From positions 1 through 26,773 of IMG/VR virus record IMGVR_UViG_3300013126_000204: a stretch of DNA of 26,773 bases. The stretch is one strand, 5' to 3'. The notes beneath the pieces are model-generated. The model was not told the DNA's origin. It saw only the letters and a list, made by a program, of their open reading frames with translations, and did no database searches. Within the stretch, counting starts at the first letter, position 1; each line of letters begins with the position of its first letter. The DNA comes from a virus. The position numbers and the translations under genes were made by a program. Of the stretch, positions 5,105 to 26,587 are shown piece after piece.

Positions 5105-5335
5105 CTATTCTGGCAAATACTCAAAATTATCAAAATTATCAACTTGCATTGTCTTCACCTCTACTCCAAAGTAAATATCCTCTCCTCTGTCTATCGGGTC
5201 TGCTTGCTCGACATATTGCGTTGATTGATCAAACGCTGGTATTTCTTGAAAAACAACAGGTTTATAACCGTCTAATTGTTCTTGACTTGCTTCAAATTCT
5301 CCATCAATTATTGCACCGTAAACTTGCTCTGGCAT
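5105..5335 (-). CDS. Small acidic protein downstream of the DGR reverse transcriptase
   Basis: About 76 residues (MPEQVYGAIIDGEFEASQEQLDG), strongly acidic, with a GYKPVVFQEIPAFDQSTQYVEQ segment like small hypothetical proteins found after tail-fibre or receptor genes in other phages. A GTG two codons upstream (5341) is a possible alternative start; both overlap the end of the reverse transcriptase gene by about 32-38 bases. It does not look like the DGR accessory protein Avd, which is a basic four- or five-helix bundle of about 120 residues. Function unknown. Confidence 0.65.
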   Translation of the reverse strand: MPEQVYGAIIDGEFEASQEQLDGYKPVVFQEIPAFDQSTQYVEQADPIDRGEDIYFGVEVKTMQVDNFDNFEYLPE

Positions 5336-6359
5336 ATTCACTCACAATCTTTTTTGCTAAATTAATATTCAATATTTCTTTAATATATTTATTGTAAAAT
5401 TTGTAACTATTACTCCGTTTTATCCAACCCCAATATGATATTACCGCACAAGCGTCTTTACGACTGGCTTCGTCTTTTTTCTTGATTTTTACCATACGGC
5501 GTTTGACTCTCAAACAATTTCTTTTTCGCAATATCGTCTTATTTTTGAAAAACCGTAATCCTAAAAAATCAATTGCTCTGTCTTTAACTGGTGAAATCTG
5601 CCAGTTGTCTTTCATTTTTAATTTTAGTCTGGCAAGATATTTCTCAATCTCTTTTCTTGCTTTGTGGAGTTTTCGCTTATTACCTCCCAATATAACCAAG
5701 TCGTCAACATAGCGGATATAATAATTTATGCCTAATTCTTCCTTAATAAAGTGGTCAAGTCCTTGCATAAAAAAGTTTGAAAACCACTGGCTGGTATAAT
5801 TACCTATCGGCAACCCCTTGTTACTGTTAATTATTTCCTCAATTAAATATATGCAATCTTGATCTTTTATTTTGTTTCTGAACATTTGCTTTAATATATC
5901 GTTATCAACAGAGTTATAAAACTTTGAAATGTCCATTTTAAGGCAATATTTCGTTCCTCGGTGGTTTGTGTCCAACCAATGCCTTAAAATCTTCTGTCCG
6001 TGGCTTGTGCCTCGGTTTGGGACACTTCCACAGTTATATTCATACATTCCGCTCATAATAATATCGTGAAGCTGAAGCATTAAAGACCAATGTATTATCT
6101 GGTCTGGGAAGTATCTCGGCTTAAATATTACCCGCTCTTTTTTGTTTGCCCCGTCAAGTATTGTCTTGATAGTATAGGGCGAAGCCTTGTAACTCTTATT
6201 TACAAGCATTTTTTGCACTTCCTTGGAATAATAATCAATGTTGTCCAAAACTTTTTTAACGAACTTTTTATTGCGTTTTCCCGCTGAAGATTTGTGTATT
6301 GCCTTGCGGATATTTTCAATGTCGCAAATTTTATCGTAAATAAAGCCTACTCGTTTCAT
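5304..6359 (-). CDS. DGR reverse transcriptase
   Basis: A 351-residue reverse transcriptase that copies the template-repeat RNA into cDNA with errors at adenines. Visible motifs: KMDISKFYNSVD (motif A, Asp143), GLPIGNYTSQWFSN (motif 4/B, residues 182-195), YIRYVDDLVILGG (catalytic YVDD, Asp219/Asp220) and a FLGLRF segment at 265-270. The IGN-x-TSQ form of motif 4, instead of the QGxxxSP form of group II intron and retroviral enzymes, is characteristic of the DGR and related branches. There is no maturase X domain or HNH endonuclease. The template repeat lies 133 bases upstream and the diversified gene just beyond it, the standard DGR layout. Composition is more AT-rich than in the head genes. 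Confidence 0.95.
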   Translation of the reverse strand: MKRVGFIYDKICDIENIRKAIHKSSAGKRNKKFVKKVLDNIDYYSKEVQKMLVNKSYKASPYTIKTILDGANKKERVIFKPRYFPDQIIHWSLMLQLHDIIMSGMYEYNCGSVPNRGTSHGQKILRHWLDTNHRGTKYCLKMDISKFYNSVDNDILKQMFRNKIKDQDCIYLIEEIINSNKGLPIGNYTSQWFSNFFMQGLDHFIKEELGINYYIRYVDDLVILGGNKRKLHKARKEIEKYLARLKLKMKDNWQISPVKDRAIDFLGLRFFKNKTILRKRNCLRVKRRMVKIKKKDEASRKDACAVISYWGWIKRSNSYKFYNKYIKEILNINLAKKIVSEYARASLRCNN

Positions 6360-6433
6360 TAATTACTTTCTTATTAGCCTCAAGGTATTTCGAGAATGAA
6401 CCTACTAAACCCTGCTCTTAACGGCTTAATTTT

Positions 6434-6445
6434 CACCAAGGGGTG
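6434..6445 (-). other. Small hairpin between template repeat and reverse transcriptase
   Basis: CACC-4-base loop-GGTG inverted repeat within the roughly 130-base spacer between the template repeat and the reverse transcriptase start. In studied DGRs this spacer is part of the RNA needed for cDNA priming. The stem is short, so the assignment is tentative. Confidence 0.25.
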
Positions 6446-6491
6446 AGGAATATGGAATGCAAGTTTTTAATAATAAATCTAATAAGAGTCT

Positions 6492-6595
6492 GACCGCCAA
6501 TGTTCACATTCGTGTTAGACGAGGTGTTATTCAAGTTCCAGTAGAACAGCCCCGTATTCGTACCATTGTTCCAGTTACCGCCGAATTGAGCGACC
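6492..6595 (-). repeat. DGR template repeat (TR)
   Basis: A 104-bp non-coding copy of the 3' end of the target gene. Aligned without gaps to 6689-6792 (offset 197) it differs at 21 positions. Read in the coding direction, 20 of these are adenines in this copy (20 of its 28 adenines) and one is T to C (6517, synonymous). Read in the target's frame it would encode VAQFGGNWNNG and GLFYWNLNNT, with many AAC codons at the sites to be varied, as in other DGRs. It fills most of the 306-base gap 6360-6665. Confidence 0.96.
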
Positions 6596-6629
6596 ACGCA
6601 CTCCATATCCCTATGTTATTTAATTGTTA

Positions 6630-6658
6630 ATTTTATATATGGGAGAGGTATCTCCCAA
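6630..6658 (-). promoter_or_regulatory. Candidate promoter for the template-repeat RNA
   Basis: On the minus strand, TTGGGA (6658-6653), a 17-base spacer and TAAAAT (6635-6630). A start near 6623 would place the transcript about 30 bases before the template repeat. The -35 box overlaps the hairpin at 6641-6656, so the two assignments partly compete. Confidence 0.3.
6641..6656 (-). other. DGR target-side hairpin/cruciform downstream of the variable repeat
   Basis: Perfect 6-bp inverted repeat GGGAGA / TCTCCC with a 4-base loop (GGTA on plus, TACC on minus), 10 bases after the target stop codon and about 32 bases past the variable repeat. DGRs such as that of Bordetella phage BPP-1 need a short-stem, tetraloop hairpin just after the variable repeat for efficient homing. 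The same structure could instead end the target mRNA, but no T tract follows it. Confidence 0.5.
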
Positions 6659-6665
6659 ACCCTCT

Positions 6666-8024
6666 CTAAAGAGCTTTTTTAAGAAGACGACCGCCAAGGT
6701 ACACAAGCGTGACGGACGAGGTGAAATTCAAGGGCCAGGAGAACAGCCCCGAAGACGCACCAGAGTTCCAGTGACCGCCGAACCGAGCGACCCTTTGACC
6801 TGTGTTTCTGTAATAATAATCCGAATAATATGTATTTGACGCTCCACCTGTTGAAACTACTGGCAATTCCGCAAACTGTAAATTTGAATCAAATCCCATT
6901 TGCTTGGCATATCCGTCTGAATTTGCATTAACATACCCAAGTTGTTCGTAAGGACTAGCAAAGACATTGGAGGTATAATTGCTTGCGTCCTTGCAAACCC
7001 AACCTTGATATTCATTGATATTTAATCCGTCAATCCATTGGTAAACGCTACCGTAAATGTTTTCAATTCCCCTATAAACAAAAGGACTTTTACCGTCTGA
7101 ATTGCTGGTTAAACTACCGCTTGAAGCAACTATATTTGAACTAAAACCGCTCTTCCAACCCGTATTATAAAGAAAATTACCAACTTCAATATTGACTGTC
7201 GTGCCGTCAAAAGTAATGGCTTTATTGCTTGCGTCATAAACATCAATCGAGGTAATAGTCCGTCCATAACAAATCTGATTTCCACCCTGTGAAGTTCCAA
7301 TACTTATTGGTTGACCGACCGCATATAAATTGGCGTTAGCGTTGGCCAATATAATTCTATTGGTATTGCTTTCTGCAACTGTGGCAAGGTGCGTTGCCGT
7401 GTATTGTCCGCTTGTCCAACCATTCATTATTGCTTGTGAATTTAAGTTTGCGAACTCAACCAAGAACAGACATTGCAATAAATCGGTTGTATGAATATCC
7501 ATTTGCTGATAACCATTGTAGAGGTTGCCTGCGTTTCCATATGCTCTGGCGTAAGTACGAAAGTCAACAATAGTTTTGCTAATCAAAGGATATTTATCTG
7601 TCTTGCTTTCAAGTTTGTTGTCACCACTCAAAGACCCAACATATTTACCTATGTCAAAGTAGGGCAATTCACGACTATTTACAAAATCACAAAAGCACAT
7701 TGGCAAATAGAACCCAAAGTACTGTTTTTTAGAAATTTCTATCTTTTTAATTCCGACTACATCGGTTTTTTTGATATAGAACTTTGGAATACGAATAAAC
7801 ACATTGCCAAAACTGTCGGTAACTTGTTTAATTTCCTTATAAATATCAGCATTGTCAAAGTCGTTTCTAACTGGCGTATTCCCAACTCCTGCGTTTGCAA
7901 CCATTCCAATAGAGTCACCAGTCCTTGTCAAAACCGTACCAGAGTTTTTGTCCCAAGAAACACCATAAATTTTAGCTTGGGAAATACCCTCAATAATTCT
8001 TCGGAATCTTAACCTGTTTGGCAT
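6666..8024 (-). CDS. DGR-diversified C-type-lectin-like protein (receptor-binding candidate)
   Basis: A 452-residue structural protein whose C-terminus has the C-type-lectin/formylglycine-enzyme-like fold of DGR targets: GIENIYGSVYQWIDG near 316-330, then FGGHWNSG, GLFSWPLN and LGGR at 415-446. The variable repeat covers residues about 411-445 and ends seven residues before the C-terminus. The N-terminal 300 residues (phage attachment part; RIPKFYIKKTDV, DFVNSRELPYFDIGKYVGS) resemble phage structural proteins that carry such heads. The start has a TAGGAGT site and is 14 bases after the preceding structural gene, so the two are co-transcribed. The gene lies in the head block, so it could be a head fibre or decoration rather than a tail tip protein. 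Confidence 0.92.
   Translation of the reverse strand: MPNRLRFRRIIEGISQAKIYGVSWDKNSGTVLTRTGDSIGMVANAGVGNTPVRNDFDNADIYKEIKQVTDSFGNVFIRIPKFYIKKTDVVGIKKIEISKKQYFGFYLPMCFCDFVNSRELPYFDIGKYVGSLSGDNKLESKTDKYPLISKTIVDFRTYARAYGNAGNLYNGYQQMDIHTTDLLQCLFLVEFANLNSQAIMNGWTSGQYTATHLATVAESNTNRIILANANANLYAVGQPISIGTSQGGNQICYGRTITSIDVYDASNKAITFDGTTVNIEVGNFLYNTGWKSGFSSNIVASSGSLTSNSDGKSPFVYRGIENIYGSVYQWIDGLNINEYQGWVCKDASNYTSNVFASPYEQLGYVNANSDGYAKQMGFDSNLQFAELPVVSTGGASNTYYSDYYYRNTGQRVARFGGHWNSGASSGLFSWPLNFTSSVTLVYLGGRLLKKAL
6689..6792 (-). repeat. DGR variable repeat (VR)
   Basis: The diversified copy, inside the last part of the target gene (codons about 411-445). It pairs with the template at 6492-6595. The 21 base differences give 13 amino acid differences, all between the fixed framework residues FGG, W, GLF, W and GG of the C-type-lectin fold. 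The 3' boundary has the form GGCGGTC, after which the two copies diverge; this end should hold the initiation-of-mutagenic-homing site. Confidence 0.95.
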
Positions 8025-9004: not shown

Positions 9005-9033
9005 ATTATATTACGATTTTAAAATATTAACAA
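9005..9033 (-). promoter_or_regulatory. Putative sigma70-type promoter before the decoration/DGR target operon
   Basis: On the minus strand, TTGTTA (9033-9028), 17-base spacer, perfect TATAAT (9010-9005). The -35 lies in the 3' end of the glycosyltransferase gene. The block from the -10 onwards (8994-9009) shares 16 identical bases with 3276-3291 before the major tail gene. Confidence 0.5.
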
Positions 9034-9976
9034 TTTCCATAGCCGATCTTCTCATTGTAAAATTTAGCGCATAATCAGATATTTGTTTAGCTACCGATCT
9101 CATATAATGGCGATTTTGATAGGCTATTTTAAGTTGTCGGGCCAAGTCTTCAACATCGCATTTAACAAAATTACCTAGGTCCCCCTTAATATGGTCATAC
9201 TCGGCCGGGACTAATTTAGTTTTGACCGGATACATAAACCTATCGTCGAAATATTCACTTATACCGTGTTCGTTCGGCGCGATAACCGGTATGCCGGTCG
9301 CCATTGCTTCAAGTGGTGGTATGCCGAAACCCTCCCCTCTGCTAGGGTAAACAAAACAATCCGCCGAATATAATAAATCGCGTAACTCTTCCGGGCTATA
9401 AGCCTGGTTAATAACTTTAACATTTGGGTATTCCTTTAGGCTGATTATTTTTTGGCCGTGTTCTTTTGCCACCGTCTTAAAAATTATCTGTACCGGGTCC
9501 TCTGGCTTAAATGCTAAATTCCAAGCCTCGAAAAGCTCGTGCCACCCCTTGCGAATATTAAAGGCCTCATATTGCAAAAATGTAAAAGTCTTATTTGCTT
9601 TTCTTTGTTTAAATGCAAATATATCGTCATTTAATCCAAGATTGACCACCTTACAATCTATCCCGGCCTTTTTAAATACCTCTTTACCCCATCGAGTAGG
9701 ATTTATAACTAAATCGGATTGTTTTAATAATGGTATCCAATCGTCGGGTATCTTGTCTGTCTCAAACATTGTAAAAATTACTTTTTTCTTGCCGTGCGCC
9801 CAAACGATATTATTAGGATAGCTATAAACTAGGCTAGCGTCGCATTTATCCCGGCGCTCTTTATCTAGCTTATCAACTACAGTAATTCCCATCTCCTCGA
9901 AATATTGCAAAAAAAGCGCCTTACTGACGCCGTAACCGTTATTTTTATCGTTAACGGTAATAAACTCTAGTAGCAT
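9011..9976 (-). CDS. GT-B glycosyltransferase (GT4-like) behind the major capsid gene
   Basis: A 321-residue glycosyltransferase of GT-B fold. The C-terminal donor site is clear: SADCFVYPSRGEGFGIPPLEAMATG (residues about 204-228) with the two glutamates of the GT4 E-x7-E motif. The N-terminal acceptor domain is short. It is a paralogue of the gene at 22204-23271 (shared FTMFET, VYPSRGEGFG, EAMATG). The start is strongly supported by GAGGAGGTGGATTTATG. It follows the major capsid gene and an intergenic structured element, so its acceptor may be a capsid or decoration protein. Native-type base composition (contains CTAG) separates it from the module that follows. Confidence 0.88.
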   Translation of the reverse strand: MLLEFITVNDKNNGYGVSKALFLQYFEEMGITVVDKLDKERRDKCDASLVYSYPNNIVWAHGKKKVIFTMFETDKIPDDWIPLLKQSDLVINPTRWGKEVFKKAGIDCKVVNLGLNDDIFAFKQRKANKTFTFLQYEAFNIRKGWHELFEAWNLAFKPEDPVQIIFKTVAKEHGQKIISLKEYPNVKVINQAYSPEELRDLLYSADCFVYPSRGEGFGIPPLEAMATGIPVIAPNEHGISEYFDDRFMYPVKTKLVPAEYDHIKGDLGNFVKCDVEDLARQLKIAYQNRHYMRSVAKQISDYALNFTMRRSAMEIVNILKS

Positions 9977-11905: not shown

Positions 11906-12040
11906 TAGCTCGCTATCCTTAGTCTCTAGCGCTCCTACGTTTTCCTCTAATTCGTCCTCTGCGGCCTTAATTTCTGCCTCGGTATCTGTATCCTCATAAA
12001 CCGGGACTTTTCCCAATTCTGGGTCGTCTATATATTTCAT
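11894..12040 (-). CDS. Small acidic protein (48 aa) between MuF and scaffold genes
   Basis: A 48-residue frame, MKYIDDPELGKVPVYEDTDT, continuing to ELLPI. The ATG overlaps the TGA of the MuF-type gene (ATGA) and has a GAGGAG ribosome site, both strong signs of a real, coupled gene. It is very acidic (about one third Asp/Glu). Function unknown; small acidic proteins at this place in other phages are virion or assembly factors, but no motif supports a specific role. Confidence 0.7.
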   Translation of the reverse strand: MKYIDDPELGKVPVYEDTDTEAEIKAAEDELEENVGALETKDSELLPI

Positions 12041-13608
12041 TTGGTTATCTCCTCAAAATATTTAAACATATCCGGGGCGTATTTCTTGAACTCTCCCGGC
12101 TTTAATCTATATTGCGCGTAACCATCGGCTAAAATCTCATCATATTGGCGCAAATATTTAATATAGCTTTTTGGTAGCCGTTTGTTATTAGCTGTTAATC
12201 CCATAAATAGAGTTTTTGCGTCCTCTTTTGTAATAGGGCTACCATTTGCGGTATGGGTATTGATAAGACGATTATAAATAACCTCCCGCATATCCTCTTT
12301 TGGTAAACTGGTAAATTTATCCGTTTTGGTTAGCATATCGTAGGCTTTTCTCTTTGTAACAATATCGCCAAATTTTGCCTCTACCTCTCTGACCGGGTTA
12401 GTCCTGGCGTCTATGGCGTGGCCTAATTCGTGGTAAAACGTACTATCGCTACCCTTTCCAAGTGTTTTAATAGTAATAGTATTCATCGCCGGGGTATACG
12501 TGCCGTGTAAAGTTTTTGCCGTTCTGCCGCCCTGTACTACTACGCCCTTATCCTGGATAAATTTAGCCTCGAAATTGCTAAGTTTAAACGTTTCTTTTTT
12601 GCCGTTAAATTCTACGGTAATATCCTTTGGTAATACTTTCGCCGGTTTAGGTGCCTTGGTGATACTCTTCTTTGGTACTGGCGCGCCGTCATCTTCGGCC
12701 GGGAAACTAAACCCGGCTTTTTTTAATCTCTCGCGCTCTATTGGGTCCGCGCTCTTTGAGGCTTTTTTAAATTCCTCGCTCATTGGGTCATATTTTGGAC
12801 TATATGGCGCGCTCCTATGCTTACAATTTGGCCCGAAAATATGGCGGCTTTGCGCTTTTATCTGGGCTAACGTTGGATAGCCTGGCGTATTGCCTGTAAC
12901 TGAATATATTTTACCCTCAACGTGGGCGCAATCATCAATAACGCCGGAGTGGACCGATATTTGCATTAAATCAAAACCATTCTCTAAGGTACGGTTTTCG
13001 CAACCAATCCGGGACGCCTCCGCGGCCTTGGTCCTGGCTAACATTGCGGCGTAGGTATCTAATTGCCAACTCTTGCCGCCCTTATCGAGAAAACTAACTA
13101 TTCCTTTGCTTTCAAGCAATCCGGCAACATTTTTAGTTAAATCTTTATTGGTCATTCCGGTTATAACGTTCTTTGCAAACTCGGCCGCTATCTCCTGCTT
13201 GGTGATCTGGTCCATAGTCTGCATAGTGGTTAGTTTAACCACCTTTAAACCGTTGGCAAATTGTAGGTATGTATCGGAGGCTATCGCCTTTACGGCGTCC
13301 TGGTGCAACTGGCTAAAGGCCGTATATTTCACGGTCTCGCCCAATGCCGCCAATTCCTTTACTGCGGTATCGGCGGCGTGTCGGTAAATTTCGGGTATAT
13401 TTTTTTCTACCCACTCCTTAGTAGATTTGTCTATTGATTGCAAAATTCGGTCTACCTGGATAAGTAGAGCCTCTTTTTGTGCCGTAGATCGTCCTATCAT
13501 ATTCTTGGCGTCAATTATCTTTAAAAGCTCTAAATAACCATCTTTATAGAGTTGGATAATCTTAGCCGTTTTGGCCTCATCGTAGGCGGCGGCCGTTAAT
13601 ATTGCCAT
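12037..13608 (-). CDS. MuF-type minor head protein with C-terminal metallopeptidase-like domain
   Basis: A 523-residue protein. The N-terminal 270 residues are the minor head (MuF/phage minor capsid) domain that binds the portal, with the conserved Cys/His pattern at its end: DDCAH (225-229) and the FGPNCKH block (258-264). A linker (about 275-330, Lys/Pro-rich) leads to a second domain with HELGH (393-397), a gluzincin-type HExxH zinc site, and DEILADGYAQY near 490-500, whose Glu491 could be the third zinc ligand. Such C-terminal domains on MuF proteins are often effectors carried in the head. The gene follows the portal by 12 bases. Confidence 0.85.
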   Translation of the reverse strand: MAILTAAAYDEAKTAKIIQLYKDGYLELLKIIDAKNMIGRSTAQKEALLIQVDRILQSIDKSTKEWVEKNIPEIYRHAADTAVKELAALGETVKYTAFSQLHQDAVKAIASDTYLQFANGLKVVKLTTMQTMDQITKQEIAAEFAKNVITGMTNKDLTKNVAGLLESKGIVSFLDKGGKSWQLDTYAAMLARTKAAEASRIGCENRTLENGFDLMQISVHSGVIDDCAHVEGKIYSVTGNTPGYPTLAQIKAQSRHIFGPNCKHRSAPYSPKYDPMSEEFKKASKSADPIERERLKKAGFSFPAEDDGAPVPKKSITKAPKPAKVLPKDITVEFNGKKETFKLSNFEAKFIQDKGVVVQGGRTAKTLHGTYTPAMNTITIKTLGKGSDSTFYHELGHAIDARTNPVREVEAKFGDIVTKRKAYDMLTKTDKFTSLPKEDMREVIYNRLINTHTANGSPITKEDAKTLFMGLTANNKRLPKSYIKYLRQYDEILADGYAQYRLKPGEFKKYAPDMFKYFEEITK

Positions 13609-17388: not shown

Positions 17389-17785
17389 AGGCTCCTGTAG
17401 CCGGGGGAGTGGTTAGGGGAGTGGGGACCGGGCCGGTTAGTTGCTCTATTTTGGCTATCAATCTGGGGTGTTCTTTGTCAAAATGCCAATACAAATTTTT
17501 AACTTTAAACTGCCTATCGTTGGCTACAAAGCCGCATTTTTCTAGTAGGTCCGCTAGCAATTCATCGCTTAAATCGCATAGCTTATTATTATAATATATC
17601 TCTGCCGTCAAACTACAATCCCCGGTTATTGGCTCACTTGGTCGCTGTTTTAATACCTGGTAAAAAAACAACCTTTCGTAGGATAAAGCCCGGGCGCTTT
17701 TGATACTTGTAGGGTGGCCGTATCTCATTACTAATTGACGGCTGTTACTTTTTCTTGGTAAATTTCCGTCTACCTTTATTAGCAT
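17387..17785 (-). CDS. RusA-like Holliday junction resolvase
   Basis: A 132-residue protein with the layout of RusA endonucleases, which cut branched DNA during phage recombination and before packaging: an N-terminal strand, a basic KSNSRQLVMRYGHP part, then YNNKLCDLSDELLADLLEKCGFVANDRQF and KEHPRLIAKIEQL. The family's DxDN and DD acid residues appear here as DLSDE and ND, so the site is divergent and activity is uncertain. A Pro/Thr-rich tail ends the protein. The ATG lies in the last codons of the sugar reductase gene (overlap of 7 bases). Confidence 0.65.
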   Translation of the reverse strand: MLIKVDGNLPRKSNSRQLVMRYGHPTSIKSARALSYERLFFYQVLKQRPSEPITGDCSLTAEIYYNNKLCDLSDELLADLLEKCGFVANDRQFKVKNLYWHFDKEHPRLIAKIEQLTGPVPTPLTTPPATGA

Positions 17786-18747
17786 ATTGCGGTTTTGTCT
17801 TGGACGTTTTCGTTAATTTTTTCGCGCCAATAATCCAATAGGTCGCTCATTGTTTGTTTAAATTTATAGCTAGGCTCCCAACCGGTCGCGGCCTTTAGTC
17901 GGCTACAATCACCTATTAAAATCTTAACGTCGCTAGGTCTCATTCTGGCCGGGTCCTGGACTATCTGCAAATCTTTCATAGCCTCGGGGTTAGCCAATGA
18001 TATTAAAGTATCTAGTACCTCCTGGGCTGTATGGCCCTCGCCTGTAGCAATGTTATAAACTTCGCCCGGCTCGCCTTTTTCTACCAATAAACGATAAGCC
18101 CGGACGGTATCGCGGACGTCGGTAAAATCTCTAATACTGGTTAGGTCGCCAACCTGGATAATTTTATTTGGATTAAAACCGGCCTCTATTTCTGCTATTT
18201 GTTTAGCAAAAGTAGACGTCATATATTGTTCGCCTCTACCTGGCCCGGTATGGTTAAATGCTCTAGTTCTGATCGTTTTGATTCCATAGCTTCTAAAATA
18301 CTGGTAGCACGTAAAATCGGCCGCTACCTTGGATACTGCATATTGAGACAATGGCCTTAGTGGGTTTGTCTCTTTAATTGGTACCTCATTCTCTAGCACT
18401 AAACCGTACTCCTCGGAACTACAAGCAACTTGAACGGTACAATCAATACCCAAAGCTCCTACGGCCTCGAGGATATGGCGGGTGCCGCCGTGATTAACCG
18501 CGTCAACCATTCCGGGCACTTTAAAACTCGTAGGAACGAACGCAAAAGCCGCCAAGTGAAAAATAGCGCTTGGCTTATAAATGTTTAGAACGCTCAAAAC
18601 TTCCTCTTGATCTAGGATATTCATTTTGACCATATCACCGGACCCCATACGGTCGGTTTTAATAACCTCGTAGCCGTTATCCTCTAGCTCTTTGATTAGG
18701 TGCTTTGCCACAAAACCGGCCGCCCCTGTAATTAACGCTCTTTTCAT
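17779..18747 (-). CDS. NAD(P)-dependent nucleotide-sugar epimerase/reductase (extended SDR)
   Basis: A 322-residue extended short-chain dehydrogenase/reductase. Rossmann motif TGAAGFVAKHL (7-17; the third glycine is Ala), catalytic SQYAVSK (Tyr136, Lys140), CSSEEYG (109-115), and RAFNHTGPGR and RPSDVKILIGDCS, which are most like GDP-mannose 4,6-dehydratase and GDP-4-keto-6-deoxymannose reductase. It probably makes an activated deoxysugar such as GDP-rhamnose in the cytoplasm for the neighbouring glycosyltransferases. The start has TTAGGAGGTGGAATTATG. Exact substrate not determinable from sequence alone. Confidence 0.88.
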   Translation of the reverse strand: MKRALITGAAGFVAKHLIKELEDNGYEVIKTDRMGSGDMVKMNILDQEEVLSVLNIYKPSAIFHLAAFAFVPTSFKVPGMVDAVNHGGTRHILEAVGALGIDCTVQVACSSEEYGLVLENEVPIKETNPLRPLSQYAVSKVAADFTCYQYFRSYGIKTIRTRAFNHTGPGRGEQYMTSTFAKQIAEIEAGFNPNKIIQVGDLTSIRDFTDVRDTVRAYRLLVEKGEPGEVYNIATGEGHTAQEVLDTLISLANPEAMKDLQIVQDPARMRPSDVKILIGDCSRLKAATGWEPSYKFKQTMSDLLDYWREKINENVQDKTAIC

Positions 18748-18767: not shown

Positions 18768-19667
18768 TTATTTTTTAATCAATTTATTATAAATAATTAT
18801 ATGTTTTTGCGCTATTTTTGGCAAATTATAACGTTTTTTATATAAATTATTAAAGTTTTTTGCTAATTTTTCCTCTAAATCGCTTAAATATTGGCATTTT
18901 ATAACGCTTTTTTTGTCTTCTTTTATATCACTAAACCAATCAATATCCTTAACGTATAGCGGCCGATTGCACGCTATAACTAACTTTGCGGCGGCACTAG
19001 AGCCAATTATACCGACGTTATAATACCAAAGTACCACGGCGTCGGCTGACTTTAAAAACTTGATTAAATTATCCTCCGTTAACCAACTTTTAGGCTCTTT
19101 AAATTTATACCCTAGATTATTACAAACCCTCCGTATCCTATGCCTATCGCTCCGCCCTATCCCAAACGTTGCAATCACCGGCTTAACCTCCGGCGTATAA
19201 AGCGGGACCTCTACTATATCTAAATGCCCGCATAGATTATCGGCAATAAATAAACCAACCTCCGGCCGCGTTACTATCGCCTGGTCAATCTGACTAAAAT
19301 CTAACTCCTCCGGTATCGCGCTATCGTGAAACGTTACAACCACCTTGCCGCCGTTATCTCTCACCTCCCGCATTATCCTATTTAGCCAAGATACGCGGTA
19401 TAGTGTCGCCTGGTACTGGATATGCAAAACATCGGGCCGGTAGGCTATTAACTCCTCCTTGAACGCCAAGGCGTTACCGTCCCACGCCCTAACAGTAAAT
19501 ATCCGGCTTACCATCGGCCCATCTTTGGCCGTTAGTTTGTTTGAAATATTCGCGAAAATTCTAAAATTTGGGTTATCCTGGCGTTTGGCCATCTCTGCAA
19601 TTAGTCCGGTTACATACTCGGAAATACCGCATTTTACGCCCCACGTCGTTAAATGAGCTACTCGCAT
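18768..19667 (-). CDS. GT-B type glycosyltransferase
   Basis: A 299-residue protein with a GT-B N-terminal domain (MRVAHLTTWGVKCGISEYVTGL, then PDVLHIQYQ, VVVTFHDS) as in GT4 family members. The C-terminal domain is reduced and lacks the clear E-x7-E motif; instead it has SADAVVLWYYNVGIIGSSAAAKLVIACNRP. The last 60 residues are Lys/Asn/Ile-rich, more AT-rich than the rest. It overlaps the GT2 gene by 10 bases, so both are translated together. Acceptor unknown. Confidence 0.75.
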   Translation of the reverse strand: MRVAHLTTWGVKCGISEYVTGLIAEMAKRQDNPNFRIFANISNKLTAKDGPMVSRIFTVRAWDGNALAFKEELIAYRPDVLHIQYQATLYRVSWLNRIMREVRDNGGKVVVTFHDSAIPEELDFSQIDQAIVTRPEVGLFIADNLCGHLDIVEVPLYTPEVKPVIATFGIGRSDRHRIRRVCNNLGYKFKEPKSWLTEDNLIKFLKSADAVVLWYYNVGIIGSSAAAKLVIACNRPLYVKDIDWFSDIKEDKKSVIKCQYLSDLEEKLAKNFNNLYKKRYNLPKIAQKHIIIYNKLIKK

Positions 19668-20350
19668 AATCTAGCCCTTTCCGCATCTACAAAGTCCCGG
19701 AGGGCGCTAGGATATTCACCGGTAAACGGTGTAACCTCTCTATCGTCTAGTATGTGGTCCGGGTCCGAAACCTCGGCGCATTTAGTCCCGCCGATCTTAT
19801 CGTAGAGTTTCCACCTTTCCCATACTTCGCGCTGTGGCTTAATATAGCCTAAATGGAAATATCTAACCGGTACCGCCGCTCGGCTCTCTACGCCCTGTAG
19901 CCCCTCGTGGACGCCAAGGCCCCAACGTATGCGCGGGATATTTCTAAATAGTACCTCCTGGGGTTGGATAAATTGGTAATTAAAAATATCTCTCATAAAG
20001 TGCCAAAACTCGACGCTATAACAATCGGCCACCGGGTCGTTAATAATTTTTCTAATTTTTTCCTCGGCGTCGTCCGGGTAAATTTCGTCCGCGTCAACCT
20101 TTAAAATCCAATCGGAGGTAGTAAAATCCTTGGCTAGGTTTCTAGCGTCGGAAAAATTAAACTCTTTGAAAAAATCAAAGTATTCAACTACTTTGACATT
20201 AGGAAATTTACCTTTGCTTTTTAACCAAAATACCGTCTTGCTAGAACTTACAATCACTACCTCATCAACCCAACTAAGTGATTGTAATACATTTAATAGG
20301 TACGGCTCCGGGGCCGGACCTATCAATAAATTTATTGCTAGTTTTTGCAT
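19658..20350 (-). CDS. Family 2-type glycosyltransferase (GT-A)
   Basis: A 230-residue GT-A enzyme. The metal-binding DxD is in LKVDADEIY (residues 86-88), preceded by FSDARNLAKDFTTSDW, typical of family 2. The C-terminal part (YFHLGYIKPQREVWERWKLYDKIGG) is like glycosyltransferases of the WaaE/LgtF type. The ATG at 20350 is chosen because a GAGGTGGAACTT ribosome cassette lies directly before it; a GTG at 20359 lies inside that cassette. It transfers a nucleotide-activated sugar, probably within the same pathway as its neighbours. Confidence 0.85.
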   Translation of the reverse strand: MQKLAINLLIGPAPEPYLLNVLQSLSWVDEVVIVSSSKTVFWLKSKGKFPNVKVVEYFDFFKEFNFSDARNLAKDFTTSDWILKVDADEIYPDDAEEKIRKIINDPVADCYSVEFWHFMRDIFNYQFIQPQEVLFRNIPRIRWGLGVHEGLQGVESRAAVPVRYFHLGYIKPQREVWERWKLYDKIGGTKCAEVSDPDHILDDREVTPFTGEYPSALRDFVDAERARLCE

Positions 20351-20368
20351 AAGTTCCACCTCATACTA

Positions 20369-22203: not shown

Positions 22204-23271
22204 TTACCTTGTTTTTTTACCGTACTTTAATTGCTTTATAACCTGTTTGAGTTTGCCCGCTCCAACGTCGGGGTTAGCCTTAGTTTTCATAATATTAGCC
22301 GCTAACCAACCTTTAACCTTTGCCTCCTTTCGGTTTAAAAATATATGTCTCATTAGTTTGGCTATTTCGTCCTTATCCGGGGCGGCCCATTTGCCAAGTA
22401 TCGGGTCAATCCCTAATAATTCACTTTTAGGGTATTTAGCCGGGACCAAATCAAATTTTTCTATCGGGTACGAATACATCGGGTTGCTAATATCCTCTAG
22501 CGCTGACCAATTCGTTAATATGGTCGGTAGGCCTGTAGCCATAGCCTCGCGGGGTGGTAGTCCGAAACCCTCGCCCCGGCTTGGATAAACGAACGCGTCG
22601 GCCTCAAAATATAGCTTTTGCATTTGTTCGGTTGTATAGTCCTCCTCGATAATCTCTATATTCTTTTTTGGTAAAAATGTTACCGGGGACCCTTGGCGGG
22701 TTTTGACTATAAACCGGACCGGCTCGTTACTGCCGAACTCCTCATAAAATGCTGATAGTGCGGCTTTTATATTCTTGCGCTCGTCCATATTCGCCACGGC
22801 TAGAAAAGTAAATATTTCGCGATTATCCGGGCGGTCCATATACTGGTAGTCGGCTAAATTTATCCCTAGCTGTATTACCTCGATATGCTTTTTTACGCCG
22901 GACTTAATAAATACATCTTTGCAAAACTGACTAGGCACTAGAACGCAATCGCATAACCGATTTAAGCAATTTACCCAATATTGAGGTAGCCGGGTGGTCT
23001 CAAACATCGTAAACGCCATTTTTGGGCCTTTAACGTCCTGGTATTGGCCAAGAGTAGGGGGTAGGTGGTAGATAATTGCCGGGTCACTTAGATTTATTTT
23101 TTCTTTTAAGATTGCTAGTAATTCCGGCTTACTGAATTTGTCTATCTTCCAATCCTGGGCCTTAAAATTAACCTCAAAGCCTTGGTTTTTAAGCCCAAGG
23201 GCTAAATTTTGCGCGCTGTATCCGTATCCATCAATCGCCAACAACGGCGCTATTATCGTTACTTTTTGCAT
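22204..23271 (-). CDS. GT4-like glycosyltransferase
   Basis: A 355-residue GT-B glycosyltransferase. N-terminal domain with DGYGYSAQNLALGL (14-27), FTMFETTRLP; C-terminal donor site VYPSRGEGFGLPPREAMATG (about 228-247) with Glu234 and Glu242 in the E-x7-E arrangement. It is a paralogue of the gene at 9011-9976, suggesting duplication or a shared source. It overlaps the preceding gene by 41 bases, an unusually long overlap that hints at a later start, but the N-terminal strand VTIIAPLLAIDGYG supports the one given. Confidence 0.86.
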   Translation of the reverse strand: MQKVTIIAPLLAIDGYGYSAQNLALGLKNQGFEVNFKAQDWKIDKFSKPELLAILKEKINLSDPAIIYHLPPTLGQYQDVKGPKMAFTMFETTRLPQYWVNCLNRLCDCVLVPSQFCKDVFIKSGVKKHIEVIQLGINLADYQYMDRPDNREIFTFLAVANMDERKNIKAALSAFYEEFGSNEPVRFIVKTRQGSPVTFLPKKNIEIIEEDYTTEQMQKLYFEADAFVYPSRGEGFGLPPREAMATGLPTILTNWSALEDISNPMYSYPIEKFDLVPAKYPKSELLGIDPILGKWAAPDKDEIAKLMRHIFLNRKEAKVKGWLAANIMKTKANPDVGAGKLKQVIKQLKYGKKTR

Positions 23272-26305: not shown

Positions 26306-26587
26306 TTATTTCCCGAAATTATCCGCAAGTATGGATAAGTCGGTAATATCCACTTTACCATCTAAATTTATATCTCCCCGGGCCATTTGAGGGTATACCC
26401 CAAATCTAAAAACTAAGATCAATAAAATTGTGGTAACGGCAAACGCTATATCTATGGCCCTGGCTATCCTCCGGCTCCGCCTGGCGTATTTATTATGGCA
26501 TACGGCGCATAGTACGCCTCTGGTAGTGATTAAAAACGCTTTTCTCTCTCCGCACTTTTCGCAAATTGGTAAATCTTCTTCTCTCAT
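26306..26587 (-). CDS. Zinc-ribbon / transmembrane / dockerin-repeat protein
   Basis: A 93-residue protein with three parts: a zinc ribbon (CEKC at 9-12, CAVC at 27-30), a basic ARRSRRIAR stretch followed by one transmembrane helix (about 46-64), and a C-terminal GDINLDGKVDITDLSILADNF, a near-perfect type I dockerin/EF-hand-like calcium repeat. By the positive-inside rule the ribbon is cytoplasmic and the dockerin repeat is outside. True dockerins have two such repeats; this has one. The ATG overlaps the preceding TGA and has an AAGGTGG site. Role unknown. Confidence 0.75.
   Translation of the reverse strand: MREEDLPICEKCGERKAFLITTRGVLCAVCHNKYARRSRRIARAIDIAFAVTTILLILVFRFGVYPQMARGDINLDGKVDITDLSILADNFGK

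What the first reader, a model, noticed from the sequence alone, without database searches (positions are those of the whole stretch)
5304..8024. Complete diversity-generating retroelement with a clear adenine mutation signature
Seen directly: a 104-bp template (6492-6595) and variable repeat (6689-6792) align without gaps and differ at 21 positions. In the coding direction 20 of 21 are adenines in the template (20 of 28 adenines changed), and the single exception is synonymous. The reverse transcriptase has the IGNYTSQ motif of DGR enzymes and the target ends in a C-type-lectin-like fold. The 13 residue changes fall between fixed framework residues. The high share of changed adenines suggests recent or repeated mutagenic homing.
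Basis: partly seen in the sequence, partly recalled or inferred. Interest (0 to 1): 0.85.

Follow-up and report, generated by a model that had tools for sequence, protein, structure and literature searches.

The report
Active phage diversity-generating retroelement without Avd
A phage genome carries a working gene-scrambling retroelement that rewrites the tip of a tail protein at set positions; near-identical sister phages differ almost only there, and its guide RNA seems to be held in a looped, knotted fold that has not been catalogued.

Summary
The template repeat (TR, 6492-6595) and variable repeat (VR, 6689-6792), both on the minus strand, differ at 21 positions: 20 at template adenines (20 of 28; p = 5e-14), and the one exception is silent. 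The RT (5304-6359) is a DGR RT, and the target (6666-8024) folds like known DGR variable proteins (TaqVP, Z 26). Every defining part of a DGR is present except Avd.

Three near-identical sister phages (0-1 differences in 3.1-7.3 kb) differ by 5, 18 and 19 bases inside VR, 40 of 42 at template adenines.

Rfam RT-18 RNA lies between TR and RT. A 16-bp helix encloses TR (12 of 16 pairs with compensatory changes; G-U far outnumbers A-C). A pseudoknot pairs the bases just after TR with bases just before RT. Both recur in unselected relatives. None of 187 related loci has an Avd match; the same tests find neither helix in 50 BPP-1-type loci, where Avd is nearly universal (66 of 70).

The element is a new member of a known kind. 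The RNA fold and its proposed roles are the new, testable part; prior description could not be excluded.

The parts
6666..8024 (-). Target gene: 452-aa tail protein with C-terminal C-type-lectin-like variable domain
   Evidence: phrog_5302 tail protein E 1e-51; model pLDDT 92, TaqVP Z 26.2
6689..6792 (-). Variable repeat (VR), 104 nt, inside the target gene
   Evidence: 21 mismatches to TR, 20 at TR adenines; variable between sister phages
6640..6657 (-). Hairpin 31 nt downstream of VR (TGGGAGA-TACC-TCTCCCA, 7-bp stem, 4-nt loop), counterpart of the BPP-1 target hairpin/cruciform
   Evidence: p 0.03 here; same place with different stem sequences in most relatives; rule of 7-10 bp stem, 4-nt loop, 4-34 bp from VR in PMC3240598
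6597..6612 (-). 5' arm of helix P1 (AGGGAUAUGGAGUGCG), 1 nt upstream of TR
   Evidence: covariation
6492..6595 (-). Template repeat (TR), 104 nt, non-coding
   Evidence: 1 difference from relatives whose VRs differ at 23-25 positions
6479..6487 (-). Segment J (UCUUAUUAG), 4 nt downstream of TR
   Evidence: pairs with J'
6446..6461 (-). 3' arm of helix P1 (UGCAUUCCAUAUUCCU)
6367..6445 (-). RT-18 RNA (Rfam RF03021), positional equivalent of the BPP-1 spacer (Sp) RNA
   Evidence: 73.4 bits, E 1.4e-11; BPP-1 Sp matches RF03022 Phage_DGR at the same place
6369..6377 (-). Segment J' (CUAAUAAGA), 9 nt upstream of the RT start codon; predicted primer strand ending in A6369
   Evidence: the priming role is inference
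5304..6359 (-). Reverse transcriptase, 351 aa, IGNYTSQ and YVDD motifs

Best explanation
This is an active, Avd-less diversity-generating retroelement of a tailed phage. Shown: the layout target-VR-hairpin-TR-structured RNA-RT, the adenine-directed TR/VR differences, recent VR turnover between otherwise identical phages, the lectin-like target (predicted fold), and two covarying RNA helices around TR (P1, which encloses TR, and J/J', which crosses P1 as a pseudoknot). Inferred: TR RNA is transcribed together with its flanks; P1 and the RT-18 fold hold the RNA on the RT; J/J' places an RNA duplex in the active site so that an adenine at the end of J' (A6369) primes cDNA opposite C6488; the RT copies TR with errors at adenines and stops where P1 closes at the 5' edge of TR; the cDNA then replaces VR, guided by the end of VR and the hairpin behind it. 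The product is a tail protein with a re-drawn binding surface, presumably for host recognition. The stated confidence is for an active Avd-less DGR; for the roles given to P1 and J/J' it is about 0.45.
For: Adenine signature p 5e-14. Sister phages: 0 differences in 7,300 bp against 5 in VR (p 5e-10), and 1 in 3,900 against 18 (p 1e-28); 40 of 42 VR differences at TR adenines. RT classification. Target fold. RT-18 RNA. P1: 92% of cells paired against 39-55% when slid, 62 double-changed cells against 16 in shuffles, 70 G-U against 8 A-C cells; in 127 unselected loci mean z 3.0, 46% at p <= 0.02. J/J': 12 double-changed cells against 3.5; in 127 loci 75% start at the expected offset against 37% in shuffles. 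No Avd. RNA region 0.9% diverged against 6.3% for the two genes.
Against: No biochemistry. The free-energy fold of the whole RNA is not unusual (z -0.6); the RNA case rests on covariation. J/J' is AT-rich here and its signal is moderate (mean z 1.7). The test does not recover a J/J' duplex in BPP-1-type loci, so the analogy to BPP-1 priming is not confirmed by sequence. Alignment A2 (29 rows) was chosen after P1 had been seen; the unselected test is. No reads were available, so activity is shown in the sister lineage and not in the window's own population.
Confidence: 0.93

Rival explanations
1. A decayed or dormant DGR: the TR/VR differences are old and no homing happens now.
For: A single genome cannot tell old from new mutation; the share of changed adenines (20/28) alone does not date them.
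Against: All ORFs are intact. Sister phages with 0-1 differences in 3.1-7.3 kb have different VRs, and the RNA flanks are more conserved than the genes.
Confidence: 0.05
2. VR differences between sister phages come from ordinary recombination with other phage strains, not from mutagenic homing.
For: Phage tail genes recombine often (general knowledge).
Against: Flanks on both sides are identical to the base, and 40 of 42 differences sit at template adenines. Swaps would bring in differences at other bases too.
Confidence: 0.02
3. P1 is a DNA-level inverted repeat (cruciform or terminator part) and not an RNA helix.
For: BPP-1 target sites do use a DNA hairpin, downstream of VR (PMC3240598).
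Against: Across relatives P1 keeps 70 G-U cells but only 8 A-C cells, and one G-U pair is kept in 27 of 29 rows: only the sense-strand RNA pairs. The arms are about 135 nt apart, too far for a simple hairpin.
Confidence: 0.07
4. The RT belongs to a retron, group II intron or DRT defence system that happens to lie next to a repeat.
For: Generic RT models for group II, retron St85 and Drt3a match weakly.
Against: All scores are far below their cut-offs. Most related RTs carry a TR/VR pair at the same place (160 of 187 loci with a repeat pair), and the tree groups it with DGR RTs.
Confidence: 0.01

Closest known systems
BPP-1 diversity-generating retroelement (Bordetella phage, mtd/avd/TR/brt)
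   Same: Gene order, adenine-directed TR>VR transfer, lectin-fold target, hairpin after VR, structured RNA between TR and RT (Rfam RF03022 in BPP-1).
   Different: No avd gene; a different RNA family (RT-18); a long helix encloses TR that the same test does not find in 50 BPP-1-type loci.
DGR of Lactobacillus phage LBR48, Butyrivibrio phage Arawn, Faecalibacterium phage Epona
   Same: RT 43-48% identical for LBR48 and Arawn, same RT clade, RNA at the same position (RT-18 or RT-4), no avd annotated in the stretches fetched.
   Different: Other hosts; only partial identity of RT and flanks.
Rfam RT-18, RT-17 and RT-4 RNAs
   Same: RF03021 matches 6367-6445; RT-17 and RT-4 match the same place in more distant relatives.
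   Different: The RT-18 model stops short of P1 and does not hold the J/J' pseudoknot. The Rfam description shown by the tool does not name DGRs.
Thermus aquaticus DGR variable protein TaqVP (5vf4)
   Same: Fold of the target (Z 26.2, 273 residues, 3.0 A).
   Different: 19% sequence identity over the aligned residues; TaqVP is from a thermophilic bacterium, this target is a phage tail protein.

Membership tests
Diversity-generating retroelement | TR/VR pair with mismatches concentrated at TR adenines | tested here: met
   20 of 21, p 5e-14
Diversity-generating retroelement | RT of the DGR clade next to TR | tested here: met
   few outgroups in the tree
Diversity-generating retroelement | VR at the 3' end of a target gene, usually of C-type-lectin fold | tested here: met
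   VR ends about 20 nt before the stop; predicted fold matches TaqVP, TvpA and Mtd
Diversity-generating retroelement | Directional transfer: TR constant while VR varies | tested here: met
   TR 0-1 differences, VR 5-25 differences among four related phages
Diversity-generating retroelement | cDNA copied from TR RNA with errors at adenines | not testable with these tools
   Needs biochemistry
Diversity-generating retroelement | Hairpin downstream of VR (phage DGRs) | tested here: met
   7-bp stem, 4-nt loop, 31 nt after VR; same place with other sequences in relatives. The published GRNA loop rule fits only the opposite strand (GGTA)
BPP-1-type (Avd-dependent) DGR | avd gene upstream of TR | tested here: not met
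   No bAvd match in the record or in 187 related loci, against 66 of 70 BPP-1-type loci
BPP-1-type (Avd-dependent) DGR | Sp RNA of Rfam family Phage_DGR (RF03022) | tested here: not met
   RT-18 instead
Rfam RT-18 RNA | Covariance-model score above the gathering cut-off | tested here: met
   73.4 against 41.3 bits

The most novel reading that the evidence does not exclude
Avd-less DGRs form a lineage with their own RNA machine: a helix (P1) that closes off TR as a loop and stops the RT at its 5' edge, crossed by a pseudoknot (J/J') that presents the primer adenine just upstream of the RT gene. Together with the RT-18 fold these would take over the work that Avd and the avd mRNA do in BPP-1.
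Probability: 0.45. Interest if true: 0.65.

Novelty: new member of a known kind. Interest (0 to 1): 0.48.

Why it matters
DGRs are the best-known natural system for targeted, repeated gene diversification, but the mechanism is known almost only from the Avd-bearing Bordetella phage element. Here many Avd-less elements share a covarying RNA fold that names the likely primer base and the likely stop for cDNA synthesis, so how a DGR works without Avd becomes directly testable. It also gives a probable function to the Rfam RT-18 RNA (and likely RT-17 and RT-4): the DGR spacer RNA. The sister phages are a clean natural record of homing in the wild.

Tried and rejected
Group II, retron and DRT readings of the RT: rejected on scores, tree and context. 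Pfam and PDB sequence search of the target: no match, so the fold was predicted instead. Whole-RNA minimum-energy folding: not unusual (z -0.6), so covariation was used. A perfect TR-enclosing helix in BPP-1 itself and in 50 BPP-1-type loci: not found above chance; imperfect or shorter pairing there is not excluded. DNA-level similarity of the RT-18 stretch in phage records: none. Literature on RT-18, RF03021/RF03022 or a DGR RNA homoduplex: nothing in the held library; Weinberg et al. 2017 is not held, and the BPP-1 RNP structure paper did not turn up, so prior description of these helices could not be excluded.

Full report
OBSERVATION. Template and variable repeat are 104 nt each, gap-free, on the minus strand, with 21 mismatches: 20 at template adenines (28 adenines in all; hypergeometric p 4.6e-14) and one silent T>C. 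Thirteen residues differ, between fixed framework residues such as FGG, GLF and SS.

SURROUNDINGS. The record is a 26,773-base viral contig classed as linear. Neighbouring genes are those of a tailed phage: tape measure, head-tail adaptor, P22-like coat protein, scaffold, SPP1-type portal, terminase. Order in the reading direction of the DGR: target (8024-6666) with VR at its end, a hairpin (6657-6640), TR (6595-6492), Rfam RT-18 RNA (6445-6367), RT (6359-5304).

IDENTITY OF THE PARTS. The RT matches phrog_1423 (E 1.7e-103). Its best solved relative by sequence is the 8ub7 series 'Reverse transcriptase' (E 8e-29), followed at a distance by group II RTs; that 8ub7 is the BPP-1 bRT complex is my own knowledge. 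In a tree it falls in a fully supported clade with the LBR48, Arawn and Epona RTs, apart from four group II RTs and a Drt3a RT; the deep branches, including the place of BPP-1, are not resolved. The target has no Pfam match, but an AlphaFold2 model (mean pLDDT 92) matches the Thermus aquaticus DGR variable protein at Z 26.2 over 273 residues, then Treponema TvpA (13.3) and Mtd (about 11).

ACTIVITY. Three contigs from other samples carry a sister phage (RT 97% identical). Outside VR they are identical to each other to 0, 1 and 1 differences in 7,300, 3,900 and 3,100 aligned bases; inside the 104-nt VR they differ at 5, 18 and 19 positions (Fisher p 5e-10, 1e-28, 2e-28). Of these 42 differences 40 fall at template adenines; the two others are one and the same C/G site. 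TR is unchanged among them. This is what mutagenic homing predicts; recombination or ordinary drift does not.

FAMILY. Searches of phage, viral-contig and genome collections gave 187 loci with related RTs; many of the genomic ones are Bacillota, the nearest being Salirhabdus and Alkalihalobacillus at 63-64%. A custom scan found a repeat pair in 160; most show mismatches confined to TR adenines and the same spacing, while a minority are partial repeats or other duplications.

RNA, RT-18. RT-18 RNA was found at 73 bits, and the same place in relatives holds RT-18, RT-17 or RT-4. In BPP-1 the same place, the Sp RNA known to fold and recruit the RT-Avd complex (PMC12875486), matches Rfam's Phage_DGR. 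So RT-18 is very likely the spacer RNA of this DGR lineage. Two further helices lie outside the Rfam model.

RNA, P1. P1 pairs 6612-6597 with 6461-6446 and so encloses TR. In 29 aligned relatives 12 of 16 pairs change on both sides; 92% of cells pair against 39-55% when slid; 62 double changes against 16 in shuffles. G-U cells outnumber A-C cells 70 to 8, which places the helix in the sense RNA. These 29 rows were picked after P1 had been seen. The unselected test of 127 loci gives mean z 3.0 with 46% at p <= 0.02, and swapping 3' flanks between loci lowers the mean score from 22.9 to 15.7. In most of the 42 strongest loci the 5' arm ends 0-7 nt before TR.

RNA, J/J'. J/J' pairs 6487-6479 (just after TR) with 6377-6369 (just before RT). 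It crosses P1, hence a pseudoknot that standard folding misses. Twelve double changes against 3.5 in shuffles; in 127 loci 75% of best helices begin within the expected seven-base offset against 37% in shuffles, with 34 different helix sequences among the significant ones. This is good but weaker support than for P1.

AVD. No bAvd match in this record. Of eight relatives searched as whole records or genomes, seven gave none and one gave a sub-threshold hit. In the held loci 0 of 187 relatives match an Avd profile, against 66 of 70 BPP-1-type loci. In 50 BPP-1-type loci the P1 and J tests give chance values (mean z 0.17 and 0.28). P1 therefore goes with the Avd-less lineage. Since the two groups also differ by descent, this is a correlation and not proof that P1 replaces Avd.

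MECHANISM. Shown: transfer signature, recent turnover, RNA helices by covariation. Inferred: priming from an adenine at the end of J' (compare the internal spacer adenine that primes in BPP-1, PMC12875486), stopping at P1, and homing into VR with help of the hairpin, whose size, loop length and distance fit the published rule (PMC3240598). Coupling of J' to RT translation is possible because J' lies 9 nt before the RT start; untested.

VERDICT. An active Avd-less phage DGR: a new member of a known kind. The RNA anatomy of its lineage is the part worth a specialist's time. Whether it has been described could not be settled, since the key papers are not in the library.

Noticed in passing
9011-9976, 17779-18747, 19658-20359, 22204-23271: Several glycosyltransferase-like genes and a sugar-nucleotide epimerase/dehydratase: a sugar-modification set, perhaps for virion or DNA glycosylation.
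   Followed up: partly
12037-13608: Minor head protein (Phage_min_cap2) whose C-terminal part carries an HELGH zinc-metallopeptidase-like motif, with a sub-threshold Pfam match to a metallopeptidase family.
   Followed up: no
26306-26587: Small protein ending in a dockerin-like repeat (GDINLDGKVDITDLSILADNFGK) after a hydrophobic stretch.
   Followed up: no
5105-5341: 78-aa ORF overlapping the RT end; the stretch 5105-5303 is 37% diverged from the sister phages although the RT gene is only 5% diverged.
   Followed up: no
L078 1865-1926: RAGATH-18 RNA match about 1.8 kb upstream of TR in a related DGR locus.
   Followed up: no
L036, L098, L100, L106, L127: Several extra TR/VR-like matches per locus, suggesting more than one target or tandem repeats.
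   Followed up: no
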